The translations under genes and the position numbers were made by a program. This document shows, piece after piece, positions 18,401-64,000 of a stretch of DNA of 64,000 nt. This DNA is from Aphelocoma coerulescens (taxonomy: Eukaryota > Chordata > Aves > Passeriformes > Corvidae): positions 9,853,301 to 9,917,300 of the forward strand of contig NW_027184085.1 in assembly GCF_041296385.1 (NCBI RefSeq). The letters run 5' to 3'. The notes under the pieces are model-generated. The model saw only the letters and a program-made list of their open reading frames with translations. It was not told the origin of the DNA and searched no databases. Numbering within the stretch: the first letter of the stretch is position 1; the number at the start of each line of letters is the position of its first letter.

Positions 18401-21400
18401 GTAAGCCATGCTCTCCTGCTTGTTTGCAGCAATGGGGACCCCTGCTCTCTCACTGCTGTTTGTGCTGCTCCCTCTGGTTTTCCTCCACCTCCTCTCAGCT
18501 CCTCCATGTTCTCCTTAGGAGTGACATAATCTACCTTGAGAATCCAGGCAGCTTGAGTTAGTAGAAAACTTGGGGCTGTGACCTGGTGTCACAGTGGTAA
18601 GAAACATCTGTCTTTTCAACATGACCTGAACAGGTGATGAATGTCGAAATATGTTCCTTTACTGTCACCCTTCCCCACCCACCCAGCCCTTTCATCTCAT
18701 CCTGCCTCTGTCCCTGTTCAAAACAGGGTCTGAAAATGTCCAGTAAGAAGAACTGGTGTGTGCTTCTGTGGATTTAGTGCCTTCTCGATCTTGACTAGGA
18801 TTGCTGGATGGAACTGCAGAAGCGAATCATTCTCTTATGTGGCAGTCCATAATGGCTGTGCTTGGAATTAAAATCCCATCCGCTAGGTTTTGCGTCTGCA
18901 TAATAAAACAAAAGCAAACAGCTGGTGACACCCAGAATTTACAGTCTGTGGTTCAGAAGTAAGTGTGCTATAGTAACCCACAGCAATGACGCATGACAAT
19001 CATACAATCGTAGAATATTAAGGAGTTGGAAAGTACCTGAAGAATGATCTAGTCCCATGCCATGGGCAGGGACACTTCCCACTAGACCATGTTGCCCAGT
19101 GCCTTATCCAACCTGGCCTTGAGCACTACCAGGACTGGGCATCCACAACCTCCTTGGGGAACCTGTGCCAGTGTTCACAATAAATGCCTTCACAATAAAG
19201 AATTTCTTCCCAATATCTAACTAAATATCCCCTTTCAATTTGTATCTATTATTCCCTATCACTACAGTCCCTGATGAAGGGTCCCTTTCTGGATTCCCTG
19301 TAGGCCCCTTCAGGTACTGGAAGGTTGCTGTGAGATCTCCACATAACCTCTTCTCCAGGTTGAACAGCCCCAATTTTCTGAGCCTGTCTTCATAGGGGAG
19401 GTGCTCCACTGTCCTAACCAACGTTGTGGAATTGCTCCAGCACTTCCATGTCCTTCTCAATATTGGGGTCACCAGAGCTGTATGCAGTAATCCAGGTGGA
19501 ATAGATGCAGCAGAACATTGAGGTATTAAAATATGTGCACTGCTTTCTGGGTACTTAGCATGTTGTTCCAGGCTGTTTGAAACTGATGGATAGGCCTGAG
19601 GTGATAACTCCCCTTAAAAGGGAGTTTGTTCATTCTTGGATGCTGATATTCAAACTTTGAATGTGTCTGTGCTTTTTTTTTGGAAAAAAGTTCTTCCAGA
19701 ATTTTTCTTCAGATTTAAAATAAAAAGCAAAGCATCTAAACAGAGGCTGGCTTGTCAAGATGTGAGTGTAATGTGGTTTTCCTAGGTCAGGTCAGTTTCA
19801 GCACACTTAACAATAAGTCTGTATTTTTCTTCTGCCGCTGACTGGCCTGTAAAGTTCTTTGTGGACTGGTAGGTGGAAGACTGGGTTGGGGCTGAGAGAG
19901 CAACTGAGTCAGAAGGGAAGATGTGGTATGACCAACCCAACCTCTTGTTTGTATGTTTTGCAACTTTGTTTTTCACTCTGCTTGGTATTCATGATGGGTC
20001 CTGTGCCTTCAGGCTGTCTCTTCTTCCTCTTGTCTGCATTTCAGGAGCAGCATCATAACTAAATGTCTGTGTTCTTTAGGATTTTACACTCTTTGTCCAT
20101 GTGTCACTGCAAGTGAACAGTTGCGTGTTTTTGTTCATTTGTGCTTGGATTTCTAAAAAAGCTGTGACTAAAAATTTGGTGCAGGTGAAAAACATCTTGA
20201 ACATTTGGCTTTTGAAACCCAGTGGTATCTTCCCATACGGGCTTTTCATTTAGGGTCTCTCTGAATGTACTCTACTAACTGAAAACCTTGCAGTGTTGCA
20301 GGTGATGTGATGAAAGGGTATGACAATGGAGATAACATTTTGTGTCTTGTTCCCCAGATAAATTCAATACGTATGTTACCCTGAAAGTGCAAAATGTGAA
20401 GAGCACGACAGTGGCCGTGCGAGGTGACCAACCCTGCTGGGAACAGGATTTTATGTTGTAAGTATGGTGGTGCACAGCACAAGGTGCTCATGGTTGCATC
20501 CTTCCGCAGCCCTGGTGTTCATAACAGAGTTGTTTGTGTGTGTATGAATCAGAATATTTGGGTAAATAAGCCTAAATACTTACAACCTAAATAATTTTCC
20601 TTCCTGTTGTACACATTGTCCTGCCGGTGTCATGGGAGATTGTCTCTGCCGGTGCCATGGACTGGCAATTGCCAGTCAGATCTGTAGTGAGGAGCCAGGT
20701 GTGAGGTTGAGCTGGGAAGTTACTGTGTGGGTTGGGTCTGGAATGATGTTGTCCTTGGCCAGTATATGCACAGCTGTGCCTGTAAATTCGAGAGACACAC
20801 ACACGCCCGTACAACACAGCTTAGGCAAGGACCAAAGGCCCGTAGCTGAGTTTAAATGGGCGTGGGAAGAGGGTGGGGATGTTGGCCCCTGGAGAGGCTG
20901 GTCAGGGCAATTAAGGGCTGTTGTTAGTGCATGCAGGGCCTCTAGTTGGTGATCCTGGTTACCTCAGTTGGGAGCAGCAGAACCAGTTCGTTCCAGCTTT
21001 TCCAGGGCTTCTACTGCAGTTGGCACTTCTGATTTGCTTTGGTCCTCATAGACCTCACATGTAGCCAAGGATTTCCCAGTATCTTTTAGAATGGTGTTTG
21101 TTTTGTTTTTTTTTTTCTGGTGGATGAATGACTTATTGATTATACTGCATCTGCTTCTGTTTCTATAGCTTTGTAAGGCAAATTGAACTAAATTTACTAA
21201 ATGGGGGGGAACGATGTTGTATTCTTGTGGGGTCAAAGCTAGTGCTGCTGTTTGAGTGGGTTGGAGGTGTTTACATAGTATCTGTACTAAGAGACCCCCA
21301 CGGAATTTTGGGAATATGTTTCCTAATCCAGCAGCAGTTTGTTTCTCCTCAGCTGAAAGTGGCAGGTTGTTACCTCAGGTTAAGGAGGTCACCTGGGTCA

Positions 21401-24400
21401 GTACAGTATTTCCATCATAGCTGTGCTCCAGCCTCCCTTGTTTGGTGGCACTCTGCTTTTGGAGCAGCACGAGAGGTATGTGCTCCTGAACACCACCATC
21501 TGCTCAGCTCTGCAGCTCCTGGTCAGACAGAGGCCATGGCTGTCACTGATGTGAAACATTCAGGGCTGGGTAAGGCTGGGATAAGGAATTGTACCTGTCC
21601 TCCAAATCACACACCCATACCCAAACTACTGACTCTTTTTGCCGGTGATTTGTGCTCGTCCTGTGGGCAGGAGCTGACTTTAAATATGGCCAGCTACAGA
21701 GGAGACTTCTCAGCTGTGATTCAAGGAAAGCACTTGAATGTGTTGGATGAAGGCTCCTGTGGTTGCTCCTCCTCCTTCCTTTCAAGCAGCTCCTGAAGCT
21801 GCACTCTGGTATCAGCTGGGAGCTTAGCTAGCGCGCTGTAAGGTCACTGAGACGCTCCATAATTAGTTGCTAGGGGATATGGAAGCAGAATATTAGCTGA
21901 ACTACCTCGCCATTATTGTCCCTGCTTTACCCAGGCAACTGCACAGTAGTTCTGGTGTCTCTTCATAACAGATATATTACATGTGGGAACGAATGTGTTT
22001 TGCATGATCCTGTGTACATCAAGTTGTCCCAGGGGAAATAGCGCTGGTATTCCAGTACTGCTGTTCTCTAGTTTGCTGTTCTTCTTTCTGGAGTCGGAAA
22101 AGGATTCTGAACACAGCAGTGTTTCCCCAAGGGAAGGATGCTTTTACTGTCTGTGCAGTGTTTACCTTTTTCATGAAGCATAGTGGAAGAATAGACCACA
22201 AGCAAAAAAATGCTTCCTGTCTGTGTTTGTTGGTTTTGCTCCAAACTCTTTGTGAGATGTAACACTGCAGAATTTGGGGCTCTGGGGTTGTCTGAGATTT
22301 GGTTATTTACCAGACCAGTGAAGCACTTCCGTGTATTCCTTGGGGACATCTTTGAATTTTGAAGGAGCTTTAAAAGAATTGCGTATTTGCTGCGTATTTG
22401 CTGCATATTTGCAGGAAACACCTCGAGTGAAAGTGCGAACTGATGTTTAGAACACAGTGATTAAATTGGTGTTGAAGTTGTGAGAAATGCCTTTATTTAT
22501 TTGTGTGTATGGAAAGGGAGGGATACCAAATTTCAGTCTCAGCTCTTTTGTTCTTATAAGCTGTTCTGCATCTAACCAGAAGGTGGAGAAAGGGAGACAC
22601 AAAGGCAGTCAAAGCCACTGTACAGAAATGCATTTTATTTATTATTCTTACCTGGTGACCTGTCCTTTGGAGTTCTCTATGGGTGTATCATGACCAATAT
22701 CTTGCTCTGACAGCGTTTGTTGAGGCAAAGTATGTGGTTTGACACTGTGACTGAAAACAGAGTATTTTCCTTCCCTTCCCTTTCTGGCCTCACAGTATTC
22801 CAACCAGCAGACAGCCAGTCATCATCAGCCTGCAAATCAGATGAATATCAAGCAGGGTGAGGGCAGAGCAGTGCTGGTAGAGCTGTTGGCCATACTGAGT
22901 AACCCTATCAGAACAGAGGATGCTGGAGACTTGATTACAAGATGCTAGCAGTAAACTCATAGAAGGGTTGTAAGAGCTTGATTTTGAACTGTTGCAGACT
23001 GAGCCACCCAAATACTGAACACTGCTGACCTCAATTCCTGCATCTCAAACAAGAACAGAAGCACTTGGATTTAAAATAGACATTAATGTGCTTTACTGTA
23101 GCTGTAGGGTTTGTCTTGAACCTTGTAGATACGATGTTCTCTTTTAGTTGCAAGAGGCAAAGTTCAAGTGGATGCTTGGATTTGTAGCAGTTCTTTCTTA
23201 TTTTGATGTGATGACAGTCTATAAGGGACTAAAATGCTTTTAAATTTCCTTGATATCTGTAACATGGATATATTAGGGCAGAGGGCAGCAGCACTGACTG
23301 TCCAAGATAGCTACTTTTAACATTAACAGTTAAAGTAAAGGGGATTAAGAGTTGCAATAAAGGGAGGCCCTGAGATCGAAAAATTACAGGGGATAGCCTT
23401 TCTTCATGGTAAGTGGGAGACAGCTGTGGTATCAACAGACAGCTCAGGATTCTTCTCTGTTGTTTTTACCCGTGTCTGCTGTGTATGTGTTAGGCTGTTC
23501 TGACGTAGGCATGTTATAAACCATGCAAAAGCGAGGCATAAATGCTATAAAACACTGAGAAGAAGCACATTTGAGATGCATCCTTTCGTTAATGAGAGGA
23601 AAGATGTTTGTGAAAACCTTCAGATCAGTATTTCCAAGAACCTGTCACTCAGTGGCCGAAGTGGTGCAACACAGCTCTGAGCAATAGTTAGTGCTGCTGA
23701 TGCAGCTATGCTAGATTTGGGACTGTTACTTTTGGCATGGAGTAGCTCCACTCACAGGTAAGTATTGGCATGTTTGCACCTTCCAGAGTACACCTGTGTT
23801 GCTGTGCTGCCAAGGGAGACGTCCACTCTATTAGAAATGGGGTGCCTGATGACAAAGAATAGCTCACCTCTAGGTTTTGGTCCAAGGTACACTTCCTCCT
23901 CCTGTGTACATAGCTGCAGAGATGAGTTCCCAACTGGCAGTTCATGCATGACATAGTTCAGGGTTTTAGTTTGCACTCTTTGTGTAATTAGTATTAAACT
24001 GTGAATTACTAGAAACTGGTGTTCCCTGTGAGTATGAGCAGCCTCAGCTACATGCTTCCAGGAGCTCTGTGTAGCTTGACACAGCTCTGTGGAAATAGTT
24101 CAGTGGTATAGTCATGGTAATGCAGAACATTAAACAAAATTAGATGGTATTCTGCTTTCTTCTCATCTGTGCTGCCTTTACTTTTCTTGCAGTGAGATCA
24201 GTCGGCTGGACCTGGGCCTAATTGTGGAAGTATGGAACAAAGGACTGATATGGGACACCCTGGTTGGGACTGTGTGGATTGCTCTGAAGGCCATTCACCA
24301 ATCTGATGAGGTTAAGCTGACAGAGAACCTTTATTTGCTCCAGTGTTGATAATCAATGTGTTACAAATCTGGCCTGATGCAGCCCAAACTCAGCTCCTCA

Positions 24401-36400: not shown

Positions 36401-39400
36401 TTTTTTTTCCCTCCTTTAGTATTCCTTTCAGGAGGAAGTCCAGAAGAAACCATTGCCCAGTGCTGCCTCCCAGTGTTGTAAGTTAGACATTTATTTTCAA
36501 TATTTTTTTCCTCTTTCAGTGTACTTGATTTCCTTCTATGGTCAGTTATCAAGTGATGGTACATCTGAACAATATTTTCTTATTAGAAGTACTTAAATCT
36601 CTGTGCAGTTATGAAAAGCTGTCCTCCTCAAAATGTTGCTCTGCAGCTTCTGATGCCAGGAAGTGAAATCAGGCATTGAGTCTTTAACTTGCTGTTGTCC
36701 TTGTGTGCAATAGGAACAGAAAATGTGTTCAAAGTCACTGAGATTGTCAGGCCCTTGTAATATTTATACCAGTAAGAAAATGCTGTGTTTATTTATTCGA
36801 CTACATTAGACTATGTTCTCTTAAAACTTCCTTTGTTAAATATAATTTTTATTACTGTTTAATGAAATTTTAAGAGGGAGAAAATAGATGGAGACCAGTA
36901 CTACTGGTAGCCTTTTAAAATGCACCAGAGGTTTGTGTACTTGATGTCTAATTTCTTCAATATTACTTTTCAATGCTGCGTTGATGGATGGAAAAAATAT
37001 TTTAACTAATTTCTGCTTATCTTGTCTTGCATTTTTTATGCTTCTGAAAACATGGATGGAAAAATAACATAGCGCTTGATGTATCTGATGATCTGCAAAA
37101 TTAGATTTTTGAAACACTGCTTTTAACATACAATAGATGAAAGCTCAGTGATGTCTCTTGTGAATGTGTTATCTACTTTTGGCAACAACATTAATAAAAT
37201 TCAAGTCTCAGAATTTAAACAAATCTTTTATCCTCTACTTAAAATCCTGTAAGATGTGCGTATTACACATTGCAGGCTGTTTATCCATTAGGCTGATTAT
37301 AGGATCTCCTCAAAACTGATAACATTAGGAAATGCTAATTACTGTTTACCTTCTTTGAGTAGAATTAATTTCTCTGTGTACTTTTTGTTAACGTTATCTT
37401 AAAAGTATCTTCAGCCAACTATAGACATTAACCAATTGCCTAGGAAATCTGATTGTGCTGTGTAGCTGGAACATGTACGGCTCTATATCAAAGTATTCCA
37501 GTAATACTTTCATTCTAGGTAACACTGAATATGTCCTCCCTTTTTATTTTTAATAAAAGGTGTATGTAGGGTTTTTTAGTTTGTTTTTTTTCCTCTTAGT
37601 TGTGCTGCTGCTGTTGTGGTTGTTGTTGTGTTTTTCAGTTTTTTGGTGTGTTTTGTTTTGTTTTTTAAATAGTCAAAAGGGTACAATTGATTTGTTAAGC
37701 CGACAAATAAGAAACATTTTGGGAGAAACTAATGTTTGATTAAATCATACTAACATAGTCTGCAGAACCGCTAATGTCAAAAGGTCAAAGAAAAACTGTC
37801 TGATGTATGAAGTGTCCAAGAAATGAACATGTTGTTTGCTGAAATTATTTTCCTGGCTCTGTGCCCTGGGCTTTGCTTTTGTTTGAGGGAGGCTGGTTTG
37901 GTTGAATCTCCTAAGTATTGGGATGTATGGGTAAATTAGAGGGAATGCTTCTGTGCCGGGAAAATAGCTGCACCTGTTCCCACAGCAGGGTGCTTTTACA
38001 TCCCTCTGTAGCTGGTTTCTCCCCTGGAGAACCAGCTGGGCTCTTGCAGGCAGACACAGGGAGGAGCAGCCCTACAGCCATCCTTGTTGTGCTGCCTGTT
38101 AACAGCCTGCATCTTGCTGGAAAATGACCTTTTGCAATATTCAGTTGAAGGCCCTGTGGTTTGAACAATTAATGTCACATAAGAATTAATATAATCATTC
38201 ATGGGATTAAAACACTCATTAGAATGGATGTTAAACATTTCATAGCAGTCTGTTGTTAATGTATTGAAGAATTTTCAATAAAGCTGATGGCACTGCATGT
38301 ACTTTGGCTTGTTTACTGCCTGAAAGTATCTGATGTCTATGAATATCTATTTCCATGGAAAAAATACAAAATAGACATTTAATATAGAGGTACTTTTGAA
38401 AAATGAGCTCTGCCTGCATCAACTTGTGCATAAGAGTTGTCAGCTTGCCTCGATACAGCACAGTACTTTGAGACTCAAGAGTTTAACTCAGAACATGCAC
38501 AGATTGTATCTCTATTGAAAGCTGACCTGGCCTTTGTGTGTGACACAGCAGCAAGGTGGGTGTCCTTCACCGCACTAAAATGTGTTCAATATGGAGTGTT
38601 CTTACTTACCATGTGGGTAAATAATTGATAGGTGTATTTTTAGATATAATAAAAACGACCCTCAAGAACACTTTTAAGACTCATTCAATTTTCCATCACA
38701 TAATTTTCATTTTCATCATCTAGATATGCCAGATGAGGTATGGTCACTGCTAGGACCAGGACACAGTCTGCTGGACAGCAGACTAAGTATTTACTTAGAA
38801 GGAGGAAAAAACACGCTCAGCGTGAGTAGGTTTTACTCTGTGAGAATGTTTTCCCAATCCTTCAAAAAATACAAAATTATCTTAAAACCTGATGCTCTAT
38901 AGAGCAAAAGTGCTGCAAAACATTTCATACAGCTTTTCATATAAAAACATAACTGCACGTATCACTGGCATCCTGCTTAGCCACTCTGGCAGCTCTCAGA
39001 AGACCATTTTGATGTCCTTGTTCCAGCTAGAGAAAATCCTACTCCAGCAGGCAGGATCAGGTTCTTTAATTAGGGAAATACATGTCCTTGCATGTTAAAA
39101 TTAGATTACACTTCAGCCCTCTTCTGCATCTGTACTTTCCGCACATCTTTTACCTTTTCCAAACCATCTTTTCTTGTGGTGGTTTCCCACTTCCTGCAGG
39201 GATGCAGCTGGTTCTTTTATCTCCCCTGAGTAGAGAAGGGGAGAAGGATGGAGCAGGATGTGAGAGAAGAGAGGTGGCCCTGTGTGAAAGCCATTCTCTG
39301 ATCTGAGGGTGGGTTTTTGTCTCTGGTCGTATATGGGCTGCTGCTTGGGCATGGTGTCATGGGAAATCTCAGCCCATACTGGGAGCTCTAATTTTTCCAG

Positions 39401-51400: not shown

Positions 51401-54400
51401 TTCCATCATACCAGAGCTACTTAGGCTTTACCTTAAATGACATTTGCCTCTGATGGGACGAAGAAATTAGTTGAGCAGCAAAGTGAGCAGTGCTCTTTGG
51501 AGCAGTGTGTTTTCTGACCCAATAGAAGTAATTACTGTTCATTAGATAGTAATGGCTCAAGTGTTGAGCAATCCCAGTGACATTGCTCAGCTGAGTAATA
51601 GCTTGTTATTCTTGTGAGGACAGTGTGAGCCTCGTGATTGACAAATAGATCGGCCCTTGCTCTACAGGCTGGAAGTTTGGTGTTCCTCAGTAGGGTTTGG
51701 CACCTTGGCATATGAAATCATTTTTGTGCAGTAAATTTTGAATATTTCTCCCAAGCACTGAACTGTGATAAAATTGATGGACACTGTGCTTTTAATAAAG
51801 CTGAATACAGCAGCATATGATTACTATTCATTTCTGTTCCGTTGACTAGAGACTGACAAGAACCCTGCAGCATTTAAACTACTAAAAGGCAGGAGGCTTA
51901 ACTCCATTTTCTATGTGGACAATCAAAGTGAACTGGTTCCACTTAAGAGTGTAGAGCAGGGCTTTTTCAAGTGGCCTGTTATTTTGCAGATGTTTTCTGC
52001 TGTTGTTCTTTTCTTCTCTTCCATCCACTTTTGAGCATTAATCTTACTGTGTTGTGAAGGAACTGAAAAGATCACCAAGAACAAATTCTACTTCAGATTA
52101 AAAAAAAGGAAATTGAATTAGAAGTATGAGAAGCACCCATGAAAGAAAAGGGGTTCCCTGATGCTGCATTCCATCTGCTTGGAATTTCAGCAGTTTAAAT
52201 ACAGGTTTAAGGATCTGGCATGTAAAGAGCACTTTCACTTTATTTCTGAGCCTCATGATGAATGACAGTGTAGGACACACACCACTGGATAACTTAGCAG
52301 AGAGGGCTTTAATTTGATTGTCCTTTTTAGATAGACTTGGTGGCAGAGAGAATGAATAATGGCTGATTCTTATTTTCTTTTGTTTCAAGCATGTTAATGG
52401 TGCACTCCACTGCCTTATGGTGTGTGTATTTCACTTTAAGCTTTCAAAGATAACCTTGCATCCTGCACAGCCATACACAGCCATATATTTTTGATACCTT
52501 TCCTCACTATAACCTGGCATTCTCCTTTCCTGAAGGATTAACAAGCAGAAGTGTTTCTGCAGGGAGAGGGACTTAGTGGAAAGGAGCTTTTTCCTTTGTG
52601 AAGGTTATTATTAGTGTTAAGTACTATACTTAAGCTAATTTACCTGTATATGTTAAATGTAGCGATTTTCCCCTGTAAGAAGTAGTGTAATTGTTTATAA
52701 GCAGAACTGCTCTCCCAGTTCTTCTGATTTTCCTACTGAGTACCTTCCGTTGATTTCTTTTAACTTAAACTAATACCTTTACAAAAAATAATAAGAAAAA
52801 AAAAGATGCATGAAAAAAAATATCCAGAACCCCATTAGTTAGGGTTAGGAATGCTGAGAAGAAAGGACAGCATTACAGCTTAAAGGTTTGAAGAGTTTTC
52901 AGAAAGAGCTCCTTTCTTCAAAGAAGTGGTTTTGGGTTTGTGTTTTTTTTTTTTTTTTCTTTTCCAGTATCTAAAGGTTCATTTTGGGAGCAGCAAAGTA
53001 CCTGAAATTTTGGGTGCTGAGCATTTTTGTGGTTGTTTTTCTTTTATCTTTTTTTTTTGTGTGTGGGGTTTCTTTCTTTGTTTTAAATAAAGATGTCTTA
53101 ATCTGCTTATTAGTAATGACTAAAGAGAAATAAACTCCTGTAATAGGAAGAGGGGAAAGAAGGATGTGGATCCGATCACTGCAGTTCCTTAGTGCACACT
53201 TGAGAGAACTGGAGGTTATATCCAGCTCCCAGATGGAGATACAGCCACAGCAGAAATAGTGGCTTTTTTGTCATTCTTCCAAAACTAAACAGTCTCCACT
53301 GTCCCAGCAAGGCAACTTGAGAGAGCTGTGCCCTTAAACTGCTTTTGTCTCTTAGCCTTTGAAGACGCTGACAGTGCCGTGGATGACCGGGACAGCGACT
53401 ACCGCAGTGAGACGAGCAACAGCATCCCCCCTCCGTACCACACCACTGTGCAGCCCAACGCCTCCGTGCACCAGTTCACGGGCCCAGCTCGCCTGCAGAA
53501 GCAGGGGGTCTTGCGGGATTCCTGTGCTGACTCCCTCCAGAACTATGATCTGGATTATCGGGAGCCCGTGGCCATCAGGTGGGTGCTGCTTTATGGGTAG
53601 CTCTCCGTTCCCCATTGTTTTTCCACTGCAGACATGAAGGTGCTGTGCTTGCGGGAGGGGGCAGGTCAGGGACTCTGAAAGTCTTCTGATAGGAAGGTGT
53701 TATGTGTGTTGTTAACACTGGGATTCTGCCATGAACCAGGAAAAACACATGAGGGTATGTGTTACACCAGATCTGGTGGTTTAGGGAGTTACCTCTAAAA
53801 GACATGCTCAACGTTGAGGCCATTTACTCTTGGTTGTACTTTCCCCTTACCTTCTGAAGGCCAGAGTAGTTGGTAGTTGCTCTTTCTGGTACCATGGCGT
53901 AGGTGTGCCTCCCAAGCCAGTGAAGCACCTTCTAGCAGAGTTATCCTATTGGGAGCTTCTTTCTTGGGGCAGATTTATTTTATCTTCTGGATTAGCTCCA
54001 GTTCTTTTAGATCTGCCAAAACAATGTATTTGAGAGGAAAGTTTGTAACAGGTTAGTTGTTGGTTTTTTGTTTTTTTTGTTCCTGTTATCATATAACAGT
54101 GTTGAATGGTGTGCTTTCTCTTTAGATTTACTTTCAGCTGTGTAAAAGATAGTTGATTAGCTCTGAATTATTTTTTGACCATAAATCAGTAGTTTCACAA
54201 GTGTTTTTAACTTGTTTAAGTGTTGAGCATTGCAGCACTAACTTACCAGAATCAATGCAAGTGAATTAGAGCTGGTTGTGCAAGGTGAAAGCAGAAGATT
54301 TTGGACAGTGCAGAAGATTTTGGACAGTGCTGGTCAGCTTGATTAGAGTGGTTGTGTAGAACAAGCTAAGCTGCTGCTTCTCCCTTTGGTGAGGAAGGAG

Positions 54401-57400: not shown

Positions 57401-60400
57401 GGTGAAATAGCTGAAACTCCTCTTGTTGCTGACGCCCACCGTTTGCATTTTGTCCCCTGTTCTCACTTGCCTGGAGTCCAGTGACTCCTAAGCCTCCAGA
57501 TGAAATCTCTGCTCTCTTGCCACCCCTGGGAGACACAGGGTCCCTGTGTTCTTTATGAATACTTCTAGAGCAAAGTCTGTAGTCCAGACTGACCGAAATG
57601 CAGGAACAGGGTAGTGGAACGATGCGTGTGGGCGCTGCATCTCAAAGTAGTCCTGTTTCTGCAATAAGTGACTTCTTTTCAGCATGCCTAAAAAAGCAGC
57701 AGCAGAGTACTGATACAGCCAAGGCTGTGTGCCCTCACTTGATCACAAAAAGCTGTTCTCCCTCAAAAAGGCATTTCTAAATTTTGTGCAGACATAACCG
57801 ATGGAATCTCATAACCCAAGCTGCTTTTATTGACTATTTGATTGAAATGTAATGATGTCGGATTGGCAGGTTTTCAATTTTGTTATTTCTGAATGTTTCT
57901 GATTTTAATTTTCATTTATTTAATGCATGTTTTTCCATTACTATTTTTTCTGTCCTTTCTATAGCTTTTTTAAAAATTGTTATTTTTCCCTTCCTATTTT
58001 TTTTGCTGCCTTTCTTCCTTTCCCTCCCACTCCCTTTATTTCTCATCTTAGACAAGGATCTCTAACTAGAAACGAAAGAGTCAGGATCATTGCATTTGAC
58101 ACTGAAGATGGAGAAGAAGAACAGGATAGTAACTATGAAGAGCTAGGAAAACTGTTAATAGAGGAGTTCTTAGAAAAAACTCATAAAACTAGAAATTGGC
58201 ATGAGAAAAACATGAAAAAGATGCAAACTCTCTCAAAAAGAGAAAATTTCAATCACTGTGAGAGATCACGGTGCTGTCAAGATGTGTATCTGGAGTCAAG
58301 GTCTGTAGATGTCCCTAGATATCCTCAGGAGTATGATACAATTGACAGAAGAAGGAAAAAGAAGCTGCGATACAATTTTGAAGAGAGGGAACGAATAAGC
58401 CTACAAAGTAATGGAGGTCTGCAGTTTCCTGGGGAGAAAACAGTTTATTTCAATGGTGTGGCAGCTGGTTCTGAACCCATTGATGATTTCCCAGTGTATG
58501 ATAGAATTGGAAAATATACCAGTAACTCTGAAAGTAAGGAACGGTTGCCTGCTTATCCAGACCCAGTCCTGCGTCCATACAAAAATGGGTTAATGGTTAA
58601 AAGTGGCAAGTTGCCCAACAAGCAGGGGATGAACCATGAGGACTCACTTCACCTAAGTAACACTGAGAACATGAAACACATGGGGATGGTAGAGGACACT
58701 TTTGTGCCTGTCGATGTCCTTGAGGAATTTGACAGCAGTGCTTCTGATGAGTTCCAGTACTCTCCTGTTTCAGATGATGAAATGGAGGAACTGGATACAC
58801 TTTCAAAAAGATGGTGTGATTCTGACATCAGCCATTTGAGAAACATAACTGCTAATTTCCCTGCAAATGTGGGTTCCCAGTTAAAGGCTAGCTCTGATAA
58901 AAAACATAAAACTAAAGAGAGCAAGCGTGGTCATTCTGTGCAAGACTTAACACTGTCTCCTGTTGAAGAACCCAATGAGGAGTACATAGACACAATGGAT
59001 GAACTTCAGTGTCTGGTAGAATCAGTCTCTGAATACTTGGCTGAAAAGGAGGAAGAAATCAGCAAATTTGGTACATTGCCAGAAACAAAAAAAAATGTTG
59101 AGAGTGTGCCACTGAAGCAGGATAATGCTGATAATTCATCAGAAGCTAAAAAGTCTGAGCAGACCAAACATCCTGCTGCAGAGGAGAGTACCAAAGGCAA
59201 ATCTGAATCTCTTCCAGACTTGTCAGGTGTGAAAAATACAGTGAATTCCCTGTTCAGCTCTTTCACAGAGAAGGTGGGGTCAAGCACAAAGCAGCTCACA
59301 GCCTCTGTTGAAAAACTTGTTTCTTCCACTCCAGAAAATACAGAAAACAAAAACTCATCAGAAGGTGGAATCTTGAATGTATTTACTAGTAAGTCTAAAA
59401 CTGAGAGTTCTTCTTCTGGAGGGGTAGCAGATAATAAATCTGATGCCAAGTTCTCCATTCAGTCTTTGCTACCATCCCAGGTGAGCAGTGATAAAAGAGC
59501 CCAGAACACAAACTCCAACAAGCCAGAAGCCGCTGAGACAGACAGTAAGGCTTCTGCACCACATCCTCCCCAGCAAACACAAGGAAATTCTGCCGACAGC
59601 CAGCAGAACCAGCATTCAGTTGTGAATTCAGTTCTAGGCATGTTTAATCCTTTAAAGATCTTCTCTGAGAAGGAAGTGCCAAAACAAGAAGTCTCAAAAG
59701 AGGAGCACACCAAGGGCAGCCATGCTGTCAAAGTTGAGGAGGCAAAAAGGAGCGAAACACCATCTGGACAGATGTCAGCCAGGACCAGCAGCACTGTTCC
59801 AGAGGCACAGAAGAGTGAGACTAAAAGTGAGACTAGAAGTGAGGCAGAGGTAAATGCAAGTAGCAGTTCTGTGTCTTCGATCTTTGGCAGGCTGACAAAC
59901 TCAGTCAGTTCCTTCAGTCTGAAAGCCAATCTTGACGGTCTCTTGGCTCCCAAGCAGCAGGATGTGCCACAGAAGCAGCCAGATTCGCATCCTGTTACAA
60001 GTCAGCCAGGTGCCGCTTTGGTAGAGGGTACGCCCACTGCCAGGGAGCAGTCTCCTGCAAATCGCTCAGAGGATCAGCATCCTGCAGGCCGTGGACTGGC
60101 AAACAAGCAAAACAGAGGTAATGTGGAACCTAAGGTACAGCCTCAAGATCAGGGTACAGCATCTGAAAGCTTTTTCAACCCACTCAAAAAGTCTTTCAGT
60201 CAGTTGTTGCTTCCTTCTGCTGAACAAGGGCAGAAAGAAAGTACCTCTGAACATTTTAAAGGCCATAGGTCTGTGGAGGATGTAAGACAAAATAGTTCAT
60301 CAAAGGAAGACCACACATTTCCTTTCACTGGAAAACTTCCTTTTATCAGTGGGCTGGGTTCTTCAGCAAAGCAGGAACAGAGGAATGAGAAGGGAGGCTT

Positions 60401-63400
60401 TATTTCATCGTTATTTAAATTTTCTTCTGCAGAAAATCTAGCACCTACACAGGACCAAAAAAGTCGTCAGGGTTCTAGTGGCAGTTCTTTGCATGAAGGC
60501 AGAAACAGTAATTCAGGAAGTTCTGTTTCACTAAAATTGAGCTCAGTTCCAAATTTATCAGACAATAAGGAGGAACTTTTACGAAGGAGAAACATGAATA
60601 AAGAAGACCTACCTACTGTCCAGGTAAACAGAGAAAAACACCAGGAGAGTGCCTCTGTTACCCTTAAGGCCAAAGAAGAGCAGCAGAAAGCTAAGAGTAC
60701 TCAAGAAGAACCTAGAAATGTAAAAGGAGGACTGATGAAAGAAGGAGTAAATGCAGCAGACTTAAGCAAAGGCTCAGTTGAATCCACCTCTTCAGCCAAA
60801 GGGCCAGAAGTTCCAATTGGAGATGATACGCAGAAGAAGCACACACCAGGTTTTCTTTCTGGGTTTCTTCACATTTCTTCCAATGAAAACACAGCCAATA
60901 ATCAAGACTCAACTGCTAAAAGTGAGGGTGATAGCCAGAAAAGCACTGCTCCTGGATTATTTTCTGGCTTATTTAGGTTTGCCTCAAGTGAAAACTTGTC
61001 TGAATGTAAGCAAGAGAAGGCAAAACCAAATTCTCTGGGCTTCATGAAGCTTTTTGATAGAGGTGAGGATTCTAGCTCGGAGACAAAACTCAGTAATTCT
61101 GGAATGGCTTCTGACAGTCAAAGCAGTGCTGGAGAAAAGCAGGAATCTTCCAGCTTCTTAAAAAATTTGCTGCCCAAACCAAAGGAGAAACAGGATAATG
61201 TGAAAACAGGGGAATCTTCCACTACTGACCACTCATCCAGTGCAAGAGTAAATGAGACAACTGAGCCCCATGTTCCCCGTGGTGGGCATCCTGTGCTCCC
61301 TGAGGCCCTAAATCTGCAAGCCAAGGTACAGGACTTATCTGGAAAGCCTGTAAATAGTAGGCATATTCCTCAACAGGATACAGAATCTAGAGTTCTTCCT
61401 ACTACTTTAAACAAAGGATCAAATGAATCTCTCAATTTGACTAATAAAAGCTATAACCCTACAGAGCAGGACTCAGCTTATCAGGAAACAAGGAGCCATT
61501 CTAGCTTTGAATGGGAATATGAAGTGGGGGGACTGGCTGACACTCATGGAATAGCAGTACCAGTTTACTACGTGTTAAACCAGAACTCTGTTCTGCCCCC
61601 TCAGTTCTTGGACTGGCCTGAAAATGATGTGGTAGTGAATCTCTGTAAAAAGGATGGGAATGCAAATGTGATGGACTGGCAGACTAATGCCAATTTTGAT
61701 GGACAGAGTTTAGATTTAAGTGCGGTATCATATGAGTCATTTGACCAGTTAATGTTTCAAGATGTTTATTTGGAAGAAAACGATGCATGGACTGCTGATT
61801 CTCTCAGTGAAAGTTACAGTAACTTTCCACCCTTTGAAAGAGACGGCAGTTACTCATTCGAAGAGTTGCCCATGGATTTGAGCTACTCCTCTGGCTGTGA
61901 TGGAACGATGTGGACTCTAATTGACCAAGAGACTTTAAGTATGGATGAAGGGTTAATGTACTCATCCTATAGCCGGGAGTATCAGGAGTGGATAATGATG
62001 CTTGAGCAGGGTGTGTGGTGGCCATCAGAAGATGGTGATTGTGGATACTACATGTACAGTGACAGCCAGTATGTGTATTCCCTGCTCACTGATCCCACTG
62101 GACAGTATGTCTACGTGTGTGCTCCTGAAACTGACTCCTACCTGAACTGCTGGGATTATAATTTCCAGATGGATTCCATTCCAAGAGCTGTACTAGAAGA
62201 CAACACAATTGCTGTTTGTGGTTTCAAAGTCCCTCTTGGCAGTGAAGATGAGCTATTTTGGTTTGCTGAAGAAGAGTGTCTAGATGATTATACAACAAAT
62301 AAACCCTTGGATTTGTCAGTAGCTTTGCAGAGGAGCGACCAGCTAATGAACATGAATTTGGAAACTTTTTCACAAATGTTTGAGGAGTCTATTTACTATC
62401 AGAGAGAGCAGCCGTTAGACTTCTCAGGTTATAAACTTCAAAAACTCAAAGTAGATTTCAGACCTGAGAAGGAAACCCGGAATCATTCAGAGGAGCCTCC
62501 GTTAACCCTTGATCTCAGAACACATTCCAGGGTGTCTGTCAGTAAATCACTGAGTAAGGAAGTCCACACCAAGGAAGTTGATAAGGCTGTCCCTGTGACG
62601 ACTTCTGGGAGTGGGTCATCAGGATTCTTTGGATTTCAGCTGTTCCAGTCTACTACTAAAGCTGAAGAAACTTCAGCATCGACTGAAAGAGTAACAGAAG
62701 CAAAAAAGACTGAGGAAGATAAGAAAACACCAGTGAATAAAGTTAGCTCCTTATTTTCTGCTTTGGGTGGACTAATTGGAAAGTCTACAAGCCCTGGCTC
62801 TGAGACATCTGAAGATTCTACCTCGAAGAGAGCAGACACGCAGTCAATATCATCTGAAAGTAAGACTGATGTTTTATCACTTACACCAAATAAAAAATTT
62901 GATGAAGAACAAGTAGGGCAAAAATTTCCTGTTACATCAGAACCAAGAAGAAATACTGCGTCAGAACTTAATTTGGAGGCTGCTAGAAATGAAAAGCCAG
63001 AATTACACCAGACTGAAAACATCTGTGTTAAAAAGCCAGGATTAACAAGATCTCCTTCCACACTGAGCCAAACTGCTGCAGATGGCAGGTCCATACGAGA
63101 AGAGAGACCTGTTAAAGCAGCACCAGCTTCCAGCCGTCTTGAAAGGCATGCAACCATTAATGAACCAAGTCAGCCACACCCAAATCAGAGCCAACCAGCC
63201 ACTGAGCCTGAGGAGACATTATTTAAAAGTGCTCTGAAATTATTCAGTCTTGGAGAAGATTCTCCTGCAAGCTCAACTTCCAGCAAACCCCAGTCTTCTG
63301 GATTTTTTGATTTCTTCAAAACACAAATAAGCAAAGAACCGCAACCATCCCCAGAACTGGAGAAAAGGCAAAGTAATAAACCAGAAGAGGTGAAACAACC

Positions 63401-64000
63401 AGAACAGAAGGAAACCTCCGGCATCTCATCTTTATTTGGATCCCTCGGAGATATCTTCAAAGTGGAGCCTGTGTCTTCTCAACCACCCTCAAGTACTATG
63501 ACTCTGCCAAAACCCAGTAGCAGAACTGTGGCTGAGCCAAGACAGAAACCTGAGAAGTCTGGGGGTCTTCAGAGTGCCAGTATGCCATGTCTGTCCTCCA
63601 CCACTAAGGAAGGGGTGAGAACTGAAGGCATGGACAAGCAGGTCTCTCCTAGCCCCAGGATGCAAGTGGAACCACAAAGCAAAAAAGCTGTGGAGGAGTC
63701 TCCTGAGAGTAAAAAAGTGCCTCCTGGAAACGTTTCACAGAAGCCAGTGGGTGCAGGTCCCAGAGTAAGCCGGCTGGGCCAGCCAGCTGGGCAGCAAAGC
63801 AGCACACCCACAGTTACACCAAAGCCACAGGGAGGTCGTGTAGGAGACACAGCTAATCAGGCAAAACCAAAGCCAGACCAGACACCCAAAGAGTCGGGTT
63901 TCAGTTTGCCATTCAGCTTCTCTGATATCACTGCTCCAAAATCCCAGCCAGCCAGTAAGAGCATATTCTCCTTCTTCACTGGATCAGATGAACCAAAGCC
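18371..64000 (+). CDS. UNC13B: UNC13B (Munc13-2), 5' part of a multi-exon gene; open at both ends
   Basis: Spliced segments 18371-18400, 20358-20457, 24193-24310, 25253-25376, 33190-33260, 36420-36477, 53356-53578 and 58052-64000 join in one uninterrupted frame with GT/AG borders. The protein begins with the Munc13 C2A domain ([28 protein letters not shown]) and continues with the UNC13B-type linker ([23 protein letters not shown]13A differs here). Munc13 proteins prime synaptic vesicles at the active zone by opening syntaxin-1 and helping SNARE assembly; the N-terminal C2A binds the RIM zinc finger or homodimerises. The visible part spans about residues 8-2231 if exon 1 contributes seven codons and a base, as in mammals. 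The start codon and the C1-C2B-MUN-C2C region lie outside. The family and paralogue calls rest on remembered homologous sequence, not a search. The whole gene runs left to right. Confidence 0.93.
18401..20357 (+). other. Intron 2 of UNC13B, contains an antisense CR1 copy
   Basis: The intron runs from GTAAGC to a TTGTTCCCCAG acceptor. Apart from the CR1 fragment at about 18999-19525 I see no gene or structured element. Confidence 0.85.
18999..19525 (-). mobile_element. CR1 LINE fragment, minus orientation
   Basis: Read on the + strand it begins with a degenerate ATCATACAATCGTAGAAT, then CCATGGGCAGGGACACTTCC, ACTAGACCATGTTGCCCAG, CAACCTGGCCTTGAGCACT, AAGAATTTCTTCCCAATAT, GAGGTGCTCCACTGTCC and ends near GCAGTAATCCAGGTGG. 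This is the reverse complement of a bird CR1 3' region. On the minus strand, 19472-19221 still translates to [15 protein letters not shown] and TATFQYLKG, the decayed C-terminal tail of the CR1 ORF2 protein. It has no intact reverse transcriptase and is a dead, 5'-truncated copy inside UNC13B intron 2, opposite to the gene. Confidence 0.93.
20358..20457 (+). CDS. UNC13B: UNC13B exon 3 (C2A core)
   Basis: This 100-nt exon lies between TTGTTCCCCAG and GTAAGTATG. It encodes (D)[17 protein letters not shown], then [15 protein letters not shown] and the first two bases of a Phe codon. It is the most conserved part of the Munc13 C2A domain. By homology numbering the Lys of NVKS is residue 32, the position whose K32E change disrupts Munc13-1 C2A homodimers, so the dimer/RIM-binding surface appears intact. 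One difference from the mammalian protein as I remember it is QPCWEQ in place of QPSWEQ. Confidence 0.95.
20458..24192 (+). other. Intron 3 of UNC13B, no gene seen
   Basis: The intron is bounded by GTAAGT and CTTTTCTTGCAG. It contains a 3 x 11-bp tandem repeat at 22380-22412 and T-rich tracts. Several open frames, including one of 189 codons at 21227-21796, have no recognisable protein and no splice support. Confidence 0.8.
22380..22412. repeat. Three tandem 11-bp units
   Basis: TGCGTATTTGC occurs twice in succession, followed by the one-mismatch copy TGCATATTTGC. It is a short minisatellite-like slippage product in the intron. Confidence 0.85.
24193..24310 (+). CDS. UNC13B: UNC13B exon 4 (C2A)
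   Basis: This 118-nt exon starts after CTTTTCTTGCAG and ends before GTTAAG. The first T completes a Phe, followed by 39 codons that include [34 protein letters not shown] and HQSDE. This is the middle of the Munc13 C2A domain. Munc13 C2A domains lack the full set of Ca2+-coordinating aspartates and act in protein binding (RIM zinc finger, homodimer) rather than as Ca2+ sensors. The exon exits in phase 0. Confidence 0.95.
24311..25252 (+). other. Intron 4 of UNC13B, nothing notable
   Basis: It is a short intron from GTTAAG to TTTTGATTCATAG. I see no repeats or genes in it. Confidence 0.8.
25253..25376 (+). CDS. UNC13B: UNC13B exon 5 (end of C2A)
   Basis: This 124-nt exon encodes [20 protein letters not shown], then [20 protein letters not shown], Phe and the first base of Asp; the donor is GTGAGT. 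It closes the C2A beta-sandwich. The wording ([23 protein letters not shown]) follows UNC13B rather than UNC13A (LTLDSQ, DPTFHRILLDAHFELPL, both from memory). Confidence 0.95.
25377..33189 (+). other. Intron 5 of UNC13B, no gene seen
   Basis: This 7.8-kb intron runs from GTGAGT to TTTTTTGACATAG. It has A-rich/C-containing low-complexity tracts (about 25948-25993, AAACAAACCCCAAACC type) and T-rich runs. No mobile element or RNA gene is recognised. Scattered short open frames show no homology. Confidence 0.75.
25948..25993. repeat. A/C-rich low-complexity tract
   Basis: The tract consists of runs such as AACAAAAACAAACCCCAAAC followed by CAAATAAACCCC. It is simple intronic sequence of the AAACC type common in bird introns. 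Confidence 0.7.
33190..33260 (+). CDS. UNC13B: UNC13B exon 6
   Basis: This 71-nt exon completes an Asp and encodes [18 protein letters not shown] then LGDDE, ending before GTAAAT in phase 0. The IPEEEARYW..KxEQ helix that follows C2A is conserved across Munc13-1/-2 and belongs to the extended C2A region contacting RIM. Confidence 0.95.
33261..36419 (+). other. Intron 6 of UNC13B, no gene seen
   Basis: It runs from GTAAAT to CCTCCTTTAG. It contains a 40-bp tandem duplication at about 34449-34525 and otherwise ordinary intronic sequence. Confidence 0.8.
34449..34525. repeat. 40-bp imperfect tandem duplication
   Basis: TAACTGCATGCTTTTATCAA begins at 34449 and recurs with one change at 34489 (TAACTGCATGCTTTTGTCAA). 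The following ATACCA..AC..AGTA is also shared, giving a period of 40 bases. Confidence 0.8.
36420..36477 (+). CDS. UNC13B: UNC13B exon 7
   Basis: This 58-nt exon lies between a strong pyrimidine tract (TTTTTTTTCCCTCCTTTAG) and GTAAGT. It encodes [19 protein letters not shown] plus the first base of the next codon. In UNC13B the default continuation is SFED (T+CC); in UNC13A the next residues are C-N-W. Both continuations are available downstream here (53356 and 47113), so this phase-1 donor is the branch point for alternative splicing. Confidence 0.95.
37570..37672. repeat. T/G-rich low-complexity tract
   Basis: The tract is rich in GTT and T runs (TTTTTAGTTTG, GCTGCTGCTGTTGTGG, TTGTTGTTG, TTTTGTTTTG). 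It is simple intronic sequence. Confidence 0.7.
38724..38821 (+). CDS. UNC13B: Candidate alternative UNC13B exon (98 nt, phase 1 to 0)
   Basis: A good acceptor (TTTTCATCATCTAG) and a consensus donor (GTGAGT) flank a segment that is open in the frame imposed by exon 7. It reads [20 protein letters not shown] then [13 protein letters not shown]. It exits in phase 0, so it cannot splice directly to 47113 or 53356 without a frame change. It becomes coherent only if the 63-nt and 10-nt candidates downstream are used too (98+63+10 = 171 nt). I know no matching UNC13 peptide, so chance resemblance to an exon remains possible. Confidence 0.35.
40439..40498. repeat. (GTTT)n / GT simple repeat
   Basis: GTTTGTTTGTTTGTTTGTTT is followed by T runs and TGTGTGTGTG. 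It is a simple-sequence tract in intron 7. Confidence 0.85.
44343..44405 (+). CDS. UNC13B: Candidate alternative UNC13B exon (63 nt, phase 0)
   Basis: It has an excellent acceptor (CTCTCTGCTCCTGCAG) and donor (GTAAGG). Of the three frames only phase 0 is open, giving [20 protein letters not shown] then Arg (21 codons); the other two contain stops. Phase 0 is what the 98-nt candidate upstream delivers. The splice sites are stronger than most in this intron, but I do not recognise the peptide. Confidence 0.4.
45967..45976 (+). CDS. UNC13B: Candidate 10-nt microexon (phase 0 to 1)
   Basis: A long pyrimidine tract with a branch-like CTAAC precedes ATCATAG, followed by GAACTGGAAG and then GTAATG. 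It encodes Glu-Leu-Glu plus one G, converting phase 0 back to the phase 1 needed by 47113 or 53356. It is very short, so the call rests on splice context and phase bookkeeping alone. Confidence 0.25.
47113..47148 (+). CDS. UNC13B: UNC13B alternative microexon, UNC13A-like NWxYFGWGEQ segment
   Basis: This 36-nt segment lies between TGTTACATGCAG and GTACGT. Entered in phase 1 from exon 7 it reads (T)GC AAC TGG..., that is [12 protein letters not shown] plus one base, and it exits in phase 1 into 53356. The paralogue UNC13A has CNWNYFGWGEQ directly after its SSQC, the exact homologous position. The length is a multiple of three, so it can be a cassette. The usual mammalian UNC13B sequence I remember lacks it. 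A match of ten of eleven residues at the right place and phase is very unlikely by chance. It probably adds a Trp-rich binding peptide after C2A. Confidence 0.82.
   Translation, partial: ATGVISDGESS
52944..53075. repeat. T-rich low-complexity tracts
   Basis: A run of about 16 T at 52946-52961 and a second T/G-rich stretch near 53036-53075 lie about 300 bases before exon 8. This is simple sequence. Confidence 0.7.
53356..53578 (+). CDS. UNC13B: UNC13B exon 8 (acidic/Ser linker)
   Basis: This 223-nt exon starts after TTTTGTCTCTTAG and ends before GTGGGT in phase 2. It encodes (S)[19 protein letters not shown], then [54 protein letters not shown] and the first two bases of Arg. [20 protein letters not shown] followed by a PPPYHT motif and PNASVHQ is diagnostic for Munc13-1/-2, and the SFED start and YDLDY end match UNC13B. 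The segment is predicted to be disordered. It is GC-richer than its flanks, as conserved coding exons often are. Confidence 0.95.
54291..54328. repeat. Perfect 19-bp tandem duplication
   Basis: GCAGAAGATTTTGGACAGT occurs twice back to back with no mismatch, which suggests a recent slippage event or a polymorphic indel. Confidence 0.95.
55883..55982. repeat. (GTTT)/T-rich simple repeat
   Basis: The tract contains runs of GTTTTTTTGTTG, TTTGTTTGG, TTGTTGTTGTTG and a terminal T run. It is a low-complexity tract about 80 bases upstream of the candidate 81-nt exon. Confidence 0.85.
56063..56143 (+). CDS. UNC13B: Candidate 81-nt cassette exon of UNC13B
   Basis: The acceptor TCTTGCTCTATTTACTTTCA-AG is strong. 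Entered in phase 2 from exon 8 (AG+G = Arg), the frame reads [18 protein letters not shown], then YESLDLSD and the first two bases of a Gln codon. Ending at 56143 gives 81 nt, phase 2 to 2, so it can be skipped or included without frame change. The acidic/Ser/Tyr composition matches the neighbouring linker. The weak point is the donor (CA/GTGGCT, not consensus). If another donor is used, the downstream frame turns hydrophobic and intron-like. Confidence 0.5.
58052..64000 (+). CDS. UNC13B: UNC13B giant exon (at least 5,949 nt), open at the window end
   Basis: After TATTTCTCATCTTAG the first A completes the Arg begun in exon 8; 1,982 codons then follow without a stop to the window edge. In exon residue numbers: 1-60 acidic then basic ([20 protein letters not shown] at the start); an Arg/Lys cluster RRRKKKLR at 99-106; a probable helix with [10 protein letters not shown] and [13 protein letters not shown] at 310-339; from 390 a Ser/Lys/Glu/Gln/Pro-rich disordered region with recurring Phe motifs (LFSSF 400, FFNPL 707, LFKF 787, FLSGFL 934, LFSGLFRF 969, FFDFF 1751, SSLFGSL 1792, SIFSFF 1970); and a Trp/Tyr-rich block at 1150-1470. 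No named domain is recognised. It may supply the long N-terminal region of a brain-type Munc13-2 isoform, known in rodents to bind ELKS1, but that equivalence is inference. The length uninterrupted by stops, together with the in-phase splice, makes coding certain. Confidence 0.92.
59811..59846 (+). repeat. Three in-frame 12-bp repeats (KSET-type)
   Basis: AAGAGTGAGACT, AAAAGTGAGACT and AGAAGTGAGGCA stand in tandem within the giant exon and encode KSET, KSET and RSEA. It is a slippage-prone coding minirepeat in a disordered stretch. Confidence 0.85.
61500..62462 (+). other. UNC13B: Trp/Tyr-rich acidic block of the giant exon (possible folded domain)
   Basis: Exon residues about 1150-1470 differ sharply from the Ser/Lys-rich flanks. 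They contain [100 protein letters not shown] and [14 protein letters not shown]. Aromatic residues, Cys and beta-prone runs are dense and Ser/Lys repeats are few, as expected of a folded module. The Tyr-x-Tyr pair around a DPTGQYVY turn recalls tyrosine-rich OCRE-like beta repeats, but I do not claim membership. Three PLDL/PLDF-type segments (residues about 1419, 1456 and the TLDL near 1486) follow. Confidence 0.6.

What the first reader, a model, noticed from the sequence alone, without database searches (positions are those of the whole stretch)
59241..64000. Array of about 18 spaced Phe/Leu short linear motifs in a disordered scaffold
Motifs of the form S-S/G-[LFI]-F-x-x-[LF]-[F] recur at exon residues about 400, 440, 527, 608, 707, 756, 783, 934, 969, 997, 1035, 1525, 1567, 1724, 1750, 1791, 1950 and 1971, separated by charged Ser/Glu/Lys/Pro linkers. 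The regular reuse of one hydrophobic pattern suggests a multivalent binding or condensate-forming tether, perhaps for an active-zone scaffold or adaptor. That role is inference.
Basis: partly seen in the sequence, partly recalled or inferred. Interest (0 to 1): 0.8.

Follow-up and report, generated by a model that had tools for sequence, protein, structure and literature searches.

The report
Giant Munc13-2 exon with CtBP-type motifs
The stretch is part of a huge exon of a bird's UNC13B (Munc13-2) synapse gene that codes a long floppy tether with many short conserved sticky patches and three short sequences of the kind that dock onto CtBP proteins, which suggests how this vesicle-priming protein might be anchored at synapses, including the ribbon synapses of the eye.

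Summary
The window ends inside a giant UNC13B (Munc13-2) exon, probably of a songbird: 58052 to beyond 64000, about 2,930 codons in the zebra-finch model, directly after the C2A-domain exons. The literal pattern matches nowhere, but 12 of 18 sites fit one shared matrix, relaxed forms far exceed shuffles, and patches are about twice as conserved as linkers outside birds, also when matched residue for residue. The hydrophobic residues tend to alpha-helical spacing (clear in 9 of 13 species tested), so the motifs are probably short amphipathic helices. AP-2, EH, clathrin and RIM-BP motifs are at or below chance.

More informative: three PxDLS-type CtBP-binding motifs (PMDLS, PLDLS, PLDFS) between the two halves of the array. 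PLDLS is the best-conserved 5-mer of the exon part in the window, shark to mammal. CtBP2 forms the B-domain of RIBEYE, the ribbon protein; Bassoon and Piccolino carry PXDLS motifs for it; ubMunc13-2 is the Munc13 of retinal ribbon synapses, where the RIM2 variant cannot bind Munc13. Best reading: a giant ubMunc13-2 isoform tethers Munc13-2 to CtBP1/RIBEYE scaffolds, with the helices as extra stickers. Binding and expression are untested. New variant of a known kind.

The parts
20354..20458 (+). UNC13B C2A-domain exon (boundaries approximate)
   Evidence: tblastn of zebra-finch UNC13B model P0001, 97%; C2 domain at P0001 residues 4-96
24194..24310 (+). UNC13B C2A-domain exon
   Evidence: tblastn, 100% to P0001
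25253..25375 (+). UNC13B exon at the end of C2A
   Evidence: tblastn, 100% to P0001
33174..33260 (+). UNC13B linker exon (left boundary uncertain; other models match from 33183 or 33189)
   Evidence: tblastn; GT donor follows
36420..36476 (+). UNC13B small linker exon, about 19 codons
   Evidence: tblastn; AG before it
53355..53578 (+). UNC13B exon directly upstream of the giant exon
   Evidence: tblastn 92% to P0001; ends AG|gtgggt
58052..64000 (+). Giant exon of UNC13B, first 1,982 complete codons; runs on past the window
   Evidence: open frame, acceptor cttag at 58047-58051, 87% to zebra-finch UNC13B isoform X2
58953..59072 (+). Most conserved N-terminal block, residues 301-340, acidic and probably helical
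   Evidence: 0.72-0.83 mean identity over 33 non-bird orthologues
59244..59288 (+). Patch at residue 400 ([11 protein letters not shown]..)
59364..59390 (+). Patch at 440; poorly kept in mammals
59622..59666 (+). Patch at 527 ([13 protein letters not shown]); off the shared matrix but conserved
59868..59948 (+). Patch at 608; lost in placentals
60162..60218 (+). Patch at 707 ([14 protein letters not shown])
60312..60365 (+). Patch at 756; off the shared matrix
60390..60446 (+). Patch at 783 ([11 protein letters not shown])
60846..60896 (+). Patch at 934 ([11 protein letters not shown])
60951..61004 (+). Patch at 969 ([12 protein letters not shown])
61035..61070 (+). Patch at 997; off the shared matrix
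61149..61184 (+). Patch at 1035 ([11 protein letters not shown]); weak matrix fit
61869..61883 (+). PxDLS motif 1, PMDLS, residues 1273-1277
   Evidence: P[LIVM]DLS in 36 of 43 aligned rows
61959..62114 (+). Tyr/Trp-rich conserved element, residues 1303-1354: helix and four short strands in a low-to-medium confidence model
   Evidence: ten-residue pLDDT means 60-75 over model residues 11-60; conservation
62304..62318 (+). PxDLS motif 2, PLDLS, residues 1418-1422
   Evidence: 0.98 identity over 33 non-bird rows, top 5-mer of 1,978; P[LIVM]DLS in 40 of 43 rows
62412..62426 (+). PxDLS-like motif 3, PLDFS, residues 1454-1458
   Evidence: P.[DN][LF][SRT] in 37 of 43 rows; lost in the 5 teleosts aligned
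62616..62657 (+). Patch at 1525 ([11 protein letters not shown])
62742..62789 (+). Patch at 1567 ([13 protein letters not shown])
63213..63278 (+). Patch at 1724 ([11 protein letters not shown]); weak matrix fit, conserved in most clades
63294..63338 (+). Patch at 1750 ([11 protein letters not shown])
63417..63470 (+). Patch at 1791 ([13 protein letters not shown]); best single helical moment (p=0.003)
63894..63938 (+). Patch at 1950; weak matrix fit, poorly kept in placentals
63954..63986 (+). Patch at 1971 (SIFSFFTGS)

Best explanation
The exon adds a very long, mostly unstructured arm to Munc13-2, directly behind its C2A domain. The arm is a multivalent tether with two kinds of sticker: (1) three PxDLS-type motifs in its best-conserved middle part dock onto the PxDLS cleft of CtBP-family proteins (CtBP1 at ordinary active zones; the CtBP2 B-domain of RIBEYE at synaptic ribbons), with the PLDLS and PLDFS pair, 36 residues apart, able to bridge CtBP subunits; (2) about 18 short amphipathic-helix patches in the window part, and more beyond it, add weak contacts to vesicle membrane or to scaffold proteins. 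Together they would hold Munc13-2 where vesicles are primed without needing RIM. Shown here: gene, exon, conservation, motif statistics, helical tendency. Inferred: CtBP/RIBEYE binding, patch function, expression at synapses.
For: Gene identity: 87% over the whole query to zebra-finch UNC13B isoform X2, C2A exons upstream, downstream joining to C1/MUN in pigeon P0027. PxDLS: three P[LIVM]D[LF]S against 0.02 in shuffles (0 of 2000); PLDLS is the top 5-mer of 1,978 by identity over 33 non-bird rows; the string PLDLS is in 114 of 120 listed proteins, at any site, and a PxDLS-like tandem 32-36 residues apart in 86 of 120, 73 of them exactly 36. Patches. Helical spacing: within patches separations 3 and 4 exceed shuffles (z 4.0 and 3.8), no beta periodicity; without picking patches, separations 3/4 in the window z +2.8/+3.2. 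[quoted passage not shown] ubMunc13-2 is the Munc13 of photoreceptor and bipolar ribbon synapses (PMC7660176); the RIM2 variant there lacks the Munc13-interaction domain and Munc13-2 lies in the arciform density with Bassoon (PMC11536687); RAI2 with two ALDLS motifs 21 residues apart turns CtBP tetramers into filaments (PMC11187106, abstract and passages).
Against: No binding, expression or localisation of this isoform was tested or found in print in my searches. The PxDLS pattern was looked for after reading the sequence. PLDLS lies in a conserved block with a predicted helix (low confidence), so its conservation may have another cause. Motif 3 is non-canonical (F for L), and of the 5 teleosts aligned none keeps motif 3 and one of five keeps even a loose motif 1, although teleosts have ribbons; two frogs have PLDL without the S in the alignment. 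Inner hair cells, which have ribbons, seem to lack Munc13 (PMC7699581), loss of ubMunc13-2 lowers the photoreceptor b-wave by only about 30% (PMC11536687), and a RIBEYE-binding PxDLS-type peptide had no acute effect on release (PMC7699581). Helical spacing is not seen in koala, grey whale, hamster or catshark when patches are not pre-selected.
Confidence: 0.5

Rival explanations
1. The patches are lipid-packing (ALPS-like) amphipathic helices that make the arm a vesicle-catching brush; the PxDLS motifs are incidental.
For: Alpha-helical hydrophobic spacing; Ser/Gly next to the core (17 of 19 anchors have S or G before the first hydrophobic residue); net charge of the 15-residue patches -1 to +3, 14 of 19 at 0 or +1.
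Against: Most patches have one to three turns, short for membrane binding; S+T+G content is only 0.13-0.53. It leaves unexplained why PLDLS is better conserved than any patch.
Confidence: 0.3
2. The patches are helical peptide ligands for a groove of one protein partner, used many times for avidity; the partner is unidentified.
For: One shared matrix for 12 of 18 sites; specific residues, not just hydrophobicity, are conserved, including Ser, Gly and Lys inside patches.
Against: Spacing and flanks vary; 6 of 18 sites do not fit; no known docking motif tried is enriched apart from an FG-like [GS][LIF]FG (3 against 0.11) and a marginal LxxLL (3 against 0.75).
Confidence: 0.3
3. The PxDLS motifs hold CtBP1 in the presynapse and so control how much reaches the nucleus, rather than placing Munc13-2.
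For: CtBP1 is a corepressor whose place in the cell depends on PxDLS partners (passages of PMC1592084); Bassoon and Piccolo doing this for CtBP1 is recalled, not read here.
Against: Nothing in the sequence separates this from the tether reading.
Confidence: 0.15
4. The exon is a gene-model artefact or is hardly ever used.
For: No paper in my searches mentions it; many database hits are bare predictions.
Against: The frame is open and conserved from shark to mammals with constraint focused on short elements; the splice acceptor and neighbouring exons are in phase.
Confidence: 0.04

Closest known systems
UNC13B / Munc13-2, ubMunc13-2 form
   Same: Same gene; C2A exons upstream, C1, C2 and MUN downstream in the pigeon model P0027.
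   Different: Adds about 2,930 residues between C2A and C1. The reviews I saw in passages name only two splice forms, ubMunc13-2 and bMunc13-2.
Bassoon and Piccolo/Piccolino
   Same: Giant, largely unstructured active-zone proteins with PXDLS motifs for RIBEYE/CtBP (passages).
   Different: No sequence relationship was seen: no such name in the 120 listed of 154 hits or the 78 hits. Here the tether is built into the priming protein itself.
RAI2 tandem ALDLS protein
   Same: Two CtBP motifs close together in an unstructured chain: 21-residue linker in RAI2, 31 here.
   Different: RAI2 is nuclear and polymerises CtBP into filaments; no such effect is known here.
ALPS (lipid-packing sensor) helices
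   Same: Short amphipathic helices with Ser/Gly near the hydrophobic face.
   Different: Shorter and repeated many times; membrane binding untested. The ALPS definition is recalled.

Membership tests
UNC13B (Munc13-2) orthologue | Best matches are UNC13B over the full length | tested here: met
   P0001 87% over 100% of the query; the named hits include many called unc-13 homolog B, though others are unnamed or misnamed
UNC13B (Munc13-2) orthologue | C2A exons on the same strand upstream, in order | tested here: met
UNC13B (Munc13-2) orthologue | C1-C2-MUN encoded downstream | not testable with these tools
   lies beyond the window and the genome search did not complete; seen in pigeon P0027
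CtBP (PxDLS) ligand | PxDLS-type core | tested here: met
   PMDLS, PLDLS canonical; PLDFS non-canonical
CtBP (PxDLS) ligand | Core conserved beyond its surroundings | tested here: met
   for PLDLS (rank 1 of 1,978) and PLDFS (top 0.7%); PMDLS top 2.5% and lost in 4 of 5 teleosts and axolotl
CtBP (PxDLS) ligand | Motif lies in an accessible, unfolded stretch | tested here: inconclusive
   low pLDDT around motifs 2 and 3 and throughout, which is not proof of disorder
CtBP (PxDLS) ligand | Direct binding to the CtBP cleft | not testable with these tools
   needs an assay
ALPS-like amphipathic helix | Alpha-helical hydrophobic periodicity | tested here: met
   patches, partly circular; unselected, window; not in 4 of 13 species
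ALPS-like amphipathic helix | Curvature-dependent membrane binding | not testable with these tools
   needs liposome assay
AP-2 / EH / clathrin adaptor ligand | DPF/DPW, FxDxF, WVxF, NPF or clathrin-box motifs above chance | tested here: not met
   0, 1 (p=0.13), 0, 0, 0
RIM-BP SH3 ligand | RxxPxxP | tested here: not met
   0 found
ELKS1 ligand as in bMunc13-2 | Same N-terminal binding region | not tested
   sequence of that region not available here; the source paper is not held

The most novel reading that the evidence does not exclude
Giant Munc13-2 is the missing link between the priming machinery and the synaptic ribbon: its PLDLS-x31-PLDFS pair bridges RIBEYE B-domains as RAI2 bridges CtBP, so that the priming protein is a structural component of the ribbon base and helps RIBEYE stack, while the helical patches hold vesicles. 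The read-through form that ends at the exon (C2A plus arm, no MUN) would be a pure scaffold, comparable to Piccolino beside Piccolo.
Probability: 0.15. Interest if true: 0.9.

Novelty: new variant of a known kind. Interest (0 to 1): 0.66.

Why it matters
How Munc13-2 reaches photoreceptor release sites is unclear, because the RIM2 variant there lacks the Munc13-interaction domain (passages of PMC11536687). Conserved CtBP-type motifs in an isoform of that very gene give a concrete molecular answer that peptide binding can test directly. The exon is large enough that shorter cDNA constructs of Munc13-2 would leave out most of the protein (inference).

Tried and rejected

A search for relatives of residues 1268-1465 listed 78 proteins at E<=1; those with informative names are UNC13B, the rest are unnamed or carry names such as futsch-like or mucin-2. 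The tool only reaches relatives of similar length that share exact words, so distant paralogues are not excluded.

Endocytic-adaptor and RIM-BP readings of the patches were rejected on motif counts. A beta-strand reading was rejected on periodicity. No Rfam family reaches its threshold in the window.

Literature limits: searches found no paper on this exon (72 included two accession strings that I recalled and could not verify); searches showed none linking Munc13 to CtBP binding in the titles, abstracts or passages I saw (25 listed 20 of 79 papers). Only open-licence papers were searchable. The primary papers on ELKS1-bMunc13-2 and Piccolino-RIBEYE are not held. Nine papers were seen in passages only (one of them, PMC11187106, with its abstract and outline too): PMC5830537, PMC7699581, PMC7660176, PMC1592084, PMC11242772, PMC11187106, PMC11536687, PMC1794582, PMC6068344.

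Rows dropped: of 154 hits, 120 were listed; 42 of these, chosen by eye for clade spread, plus the window went into the conservation alignment; 38 and 26 proteins plus a window slice went into the two structure alignments.

One script failed part-way (index error at the window end; its anchored listing and counts up to offset +11 were printed) and its remaining part was rerun.

Full report
What the sequence is. The frame 58053-63998 is open throughout. A search found 154 relatives, 120 listed; the best named one is zebra-finch 'protein unc-13 homolog B isoform X2', 87% identical over the whole query, followed by other birds, turtles (54-57%), squamates, marsupials, placentals (about 30-34%), amphibians, ray-finned fishes and a catshark. 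Mapping that model onto the window places C2A-domain exons at 20354-20458, 24194-24310 and 25253-25375, further small exons at about 33174, 36420 and 53355, and then the giant exon, whose acceptor ends at 58051. The window is therefore UNC13B, probably of a songbird, and the exon sits directly behind the C2A part; that C2A marks the ubMunc13-2 form is established knowledge, recalled. In relatives the exon continues for roughly another 950 codons and either splices into exons for C1, C2 and MUN (pigeon P0027) or reads on to a stop a few codons later (zebra finch P0001).

The array. Relaxed forms are strongly enriched over shuffles; one loose form is not. Ten other vertebrates have 14-49 matrix hits against 2.6-4.6 in shuffles, but these are homologues of the training sites. 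Anchored, the sites read [SG]-[FLI]-[FL]-x-x-[FL]: S or G before the first hydrophobic in 17 of 19, F or L four places on in 16 of 19.

Conservation. In every clade patches are more conserved than linkers: turtles 0.74 against 0.42, squamates 0.55/0.26, marsupials 0.50/0.21, placentals 0.46/0.21, amphibians 0.36/0.12, fishes 0.34/0.12 (19 patches, one added by me). The gap widens when linkers are reweighted to patch composition. Patches could anchor the alignment and so flatter themselves; but in birds, where gaps are 1-2%, the difference holds (0.90 against 0.73). In placentals 13 of 19 patches keep at least three quarters of their core positions hydrophobic; 440, 472, 610, 997, 1035 and 1950 do not.

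What the patches may be. Inside patches hydrophobic residues stand 3 and 4 apart more often than in shuffled patches (z 4.0 and 3.8), with power at 85-115 degrees and none at beta angles. This is partly circular, as the patches were chosen by a pattern of that spacing. Without choosing patches, the window still shows it (z +2.8 and +3.2), and separation 3 or 4 reaches z 2 in 9 of 13 sequences; koala, whale, hamster and catshark do not show it. I read the patches as short amphipathic helices. Their target, membrane or protein, is open. Endocytic-adaptor and RIM-BP motifs are at or below chance.

The CtBP-type motifs. Residues 1273-1277, 1418-1422 and 1454-1458 read PMDLS, PLDLS and PLDFS. Shuffles of the exon give 0.02 P[LIVM]D[LF]S motifs on average and none of 2000 gives three; I searched for this class after noticing it, so conservation is the better argument. 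PLDLS is identical at 98% of cells over 33 non-bird orthologues, the highest of 1,978 5-mers; PMDLS stands at 0.81 and PLDFS at 0.91. Rows with P[LIVM]DLS: 36 of 43 at site 1 and 40 of 43 at site 2; site 3 has P.[DN][LF][SRT] in 37 of 43. None of the 5 teleosts aligned keeps site 3 and one keeps a loose site 1. A PxDLS-like tandem 32-36 residues apart is in 86 of 120 listed proteins, 73 of them at exactly 36.

Mechanism. CtBP1 and CtBP2 bind PxDLS peptides, and the CTBP2 gene also makes RIBEYE (passages of PMC1592084). Bassoon and Piccolo/Piccolino carry PXDLS motifs for the RIBEYE B-domain (passage of PMC11242772). ubMunc13-2 is the Munc13 of photoreceptor and bipolar ribbon synapses (passages of PMC7660176), and the usual RIM route is missing there (passage of PMC11536687). 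RAI2, with two such motifs 21 residues apart, stacks CtBP tetramers into filaments, each motif binding at about 5 micromolar (PMC11187106). I therefore propose that the giant arm docks Munc13-2 on CtBP1 or RIBEYE scaffolds, with patches adding weak contacts. The motif, its conservation and the gene are shown; binding, expression and place in the synapse are inferred.

Against it. Inner hair cells appear to lack Munc13, and a RIBEYE-binding PxDLS-type peptide had no acute effect on release (passages of PMC7699581). Loss of ubMunc13-2 has a modest effect in photoreceptors. Teleosts keep only PLDLS reliably. Structure models are low-confidence, so disorder around the motifs is likely but not shown. 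The block may be conserved for a reason other than CtBP.

Verdict. An already annotated but, in my searches, undescribed giant isoform of a known protein, with a specific testable partner class. New variant of a known kind; interest 0.66.

Noticed in passing
beyond 64000; seen in relatives P0001, P0025, P0046, P0062, P0074 and others: Models that read through the exon's end finish in KR[PL]V plus a few residues and stop, while spliced models (P0027, P0042) continue K-S-P-... If the junction is right, many non-bird species would have a GC rather than GT donor there, which might favour read-through. Inferred from protein ends only.
   Followed up: partly
58953-59072: Residues 301-340 (..[32 protein letters not shown]) form the longest highly conserved stretch of the exon part in the window, 0.72-0.83 identity over 33 non-bird orthologues; function unknown.
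   Followed up: no
61959-62114: A Tyr/Trp-rich conserved element ([16 protein letters not shown]...[14 protein letters not shown]) is modelled as helix plus four strands at pLDDT 60-75; possibly a small domain.
   Followed up: partly
about 56063-56150, plus strand: A possible extra small UNC13B exon ([27 protein letters not shown]); a similar stretch occurs in frog model P0070. Splice sites not settled.
   Followed up: partly
   Followed up: yes
55880-55982: T/G-rich imperfect tandem repeat in the intron before the giant exon.
   Followed up: no
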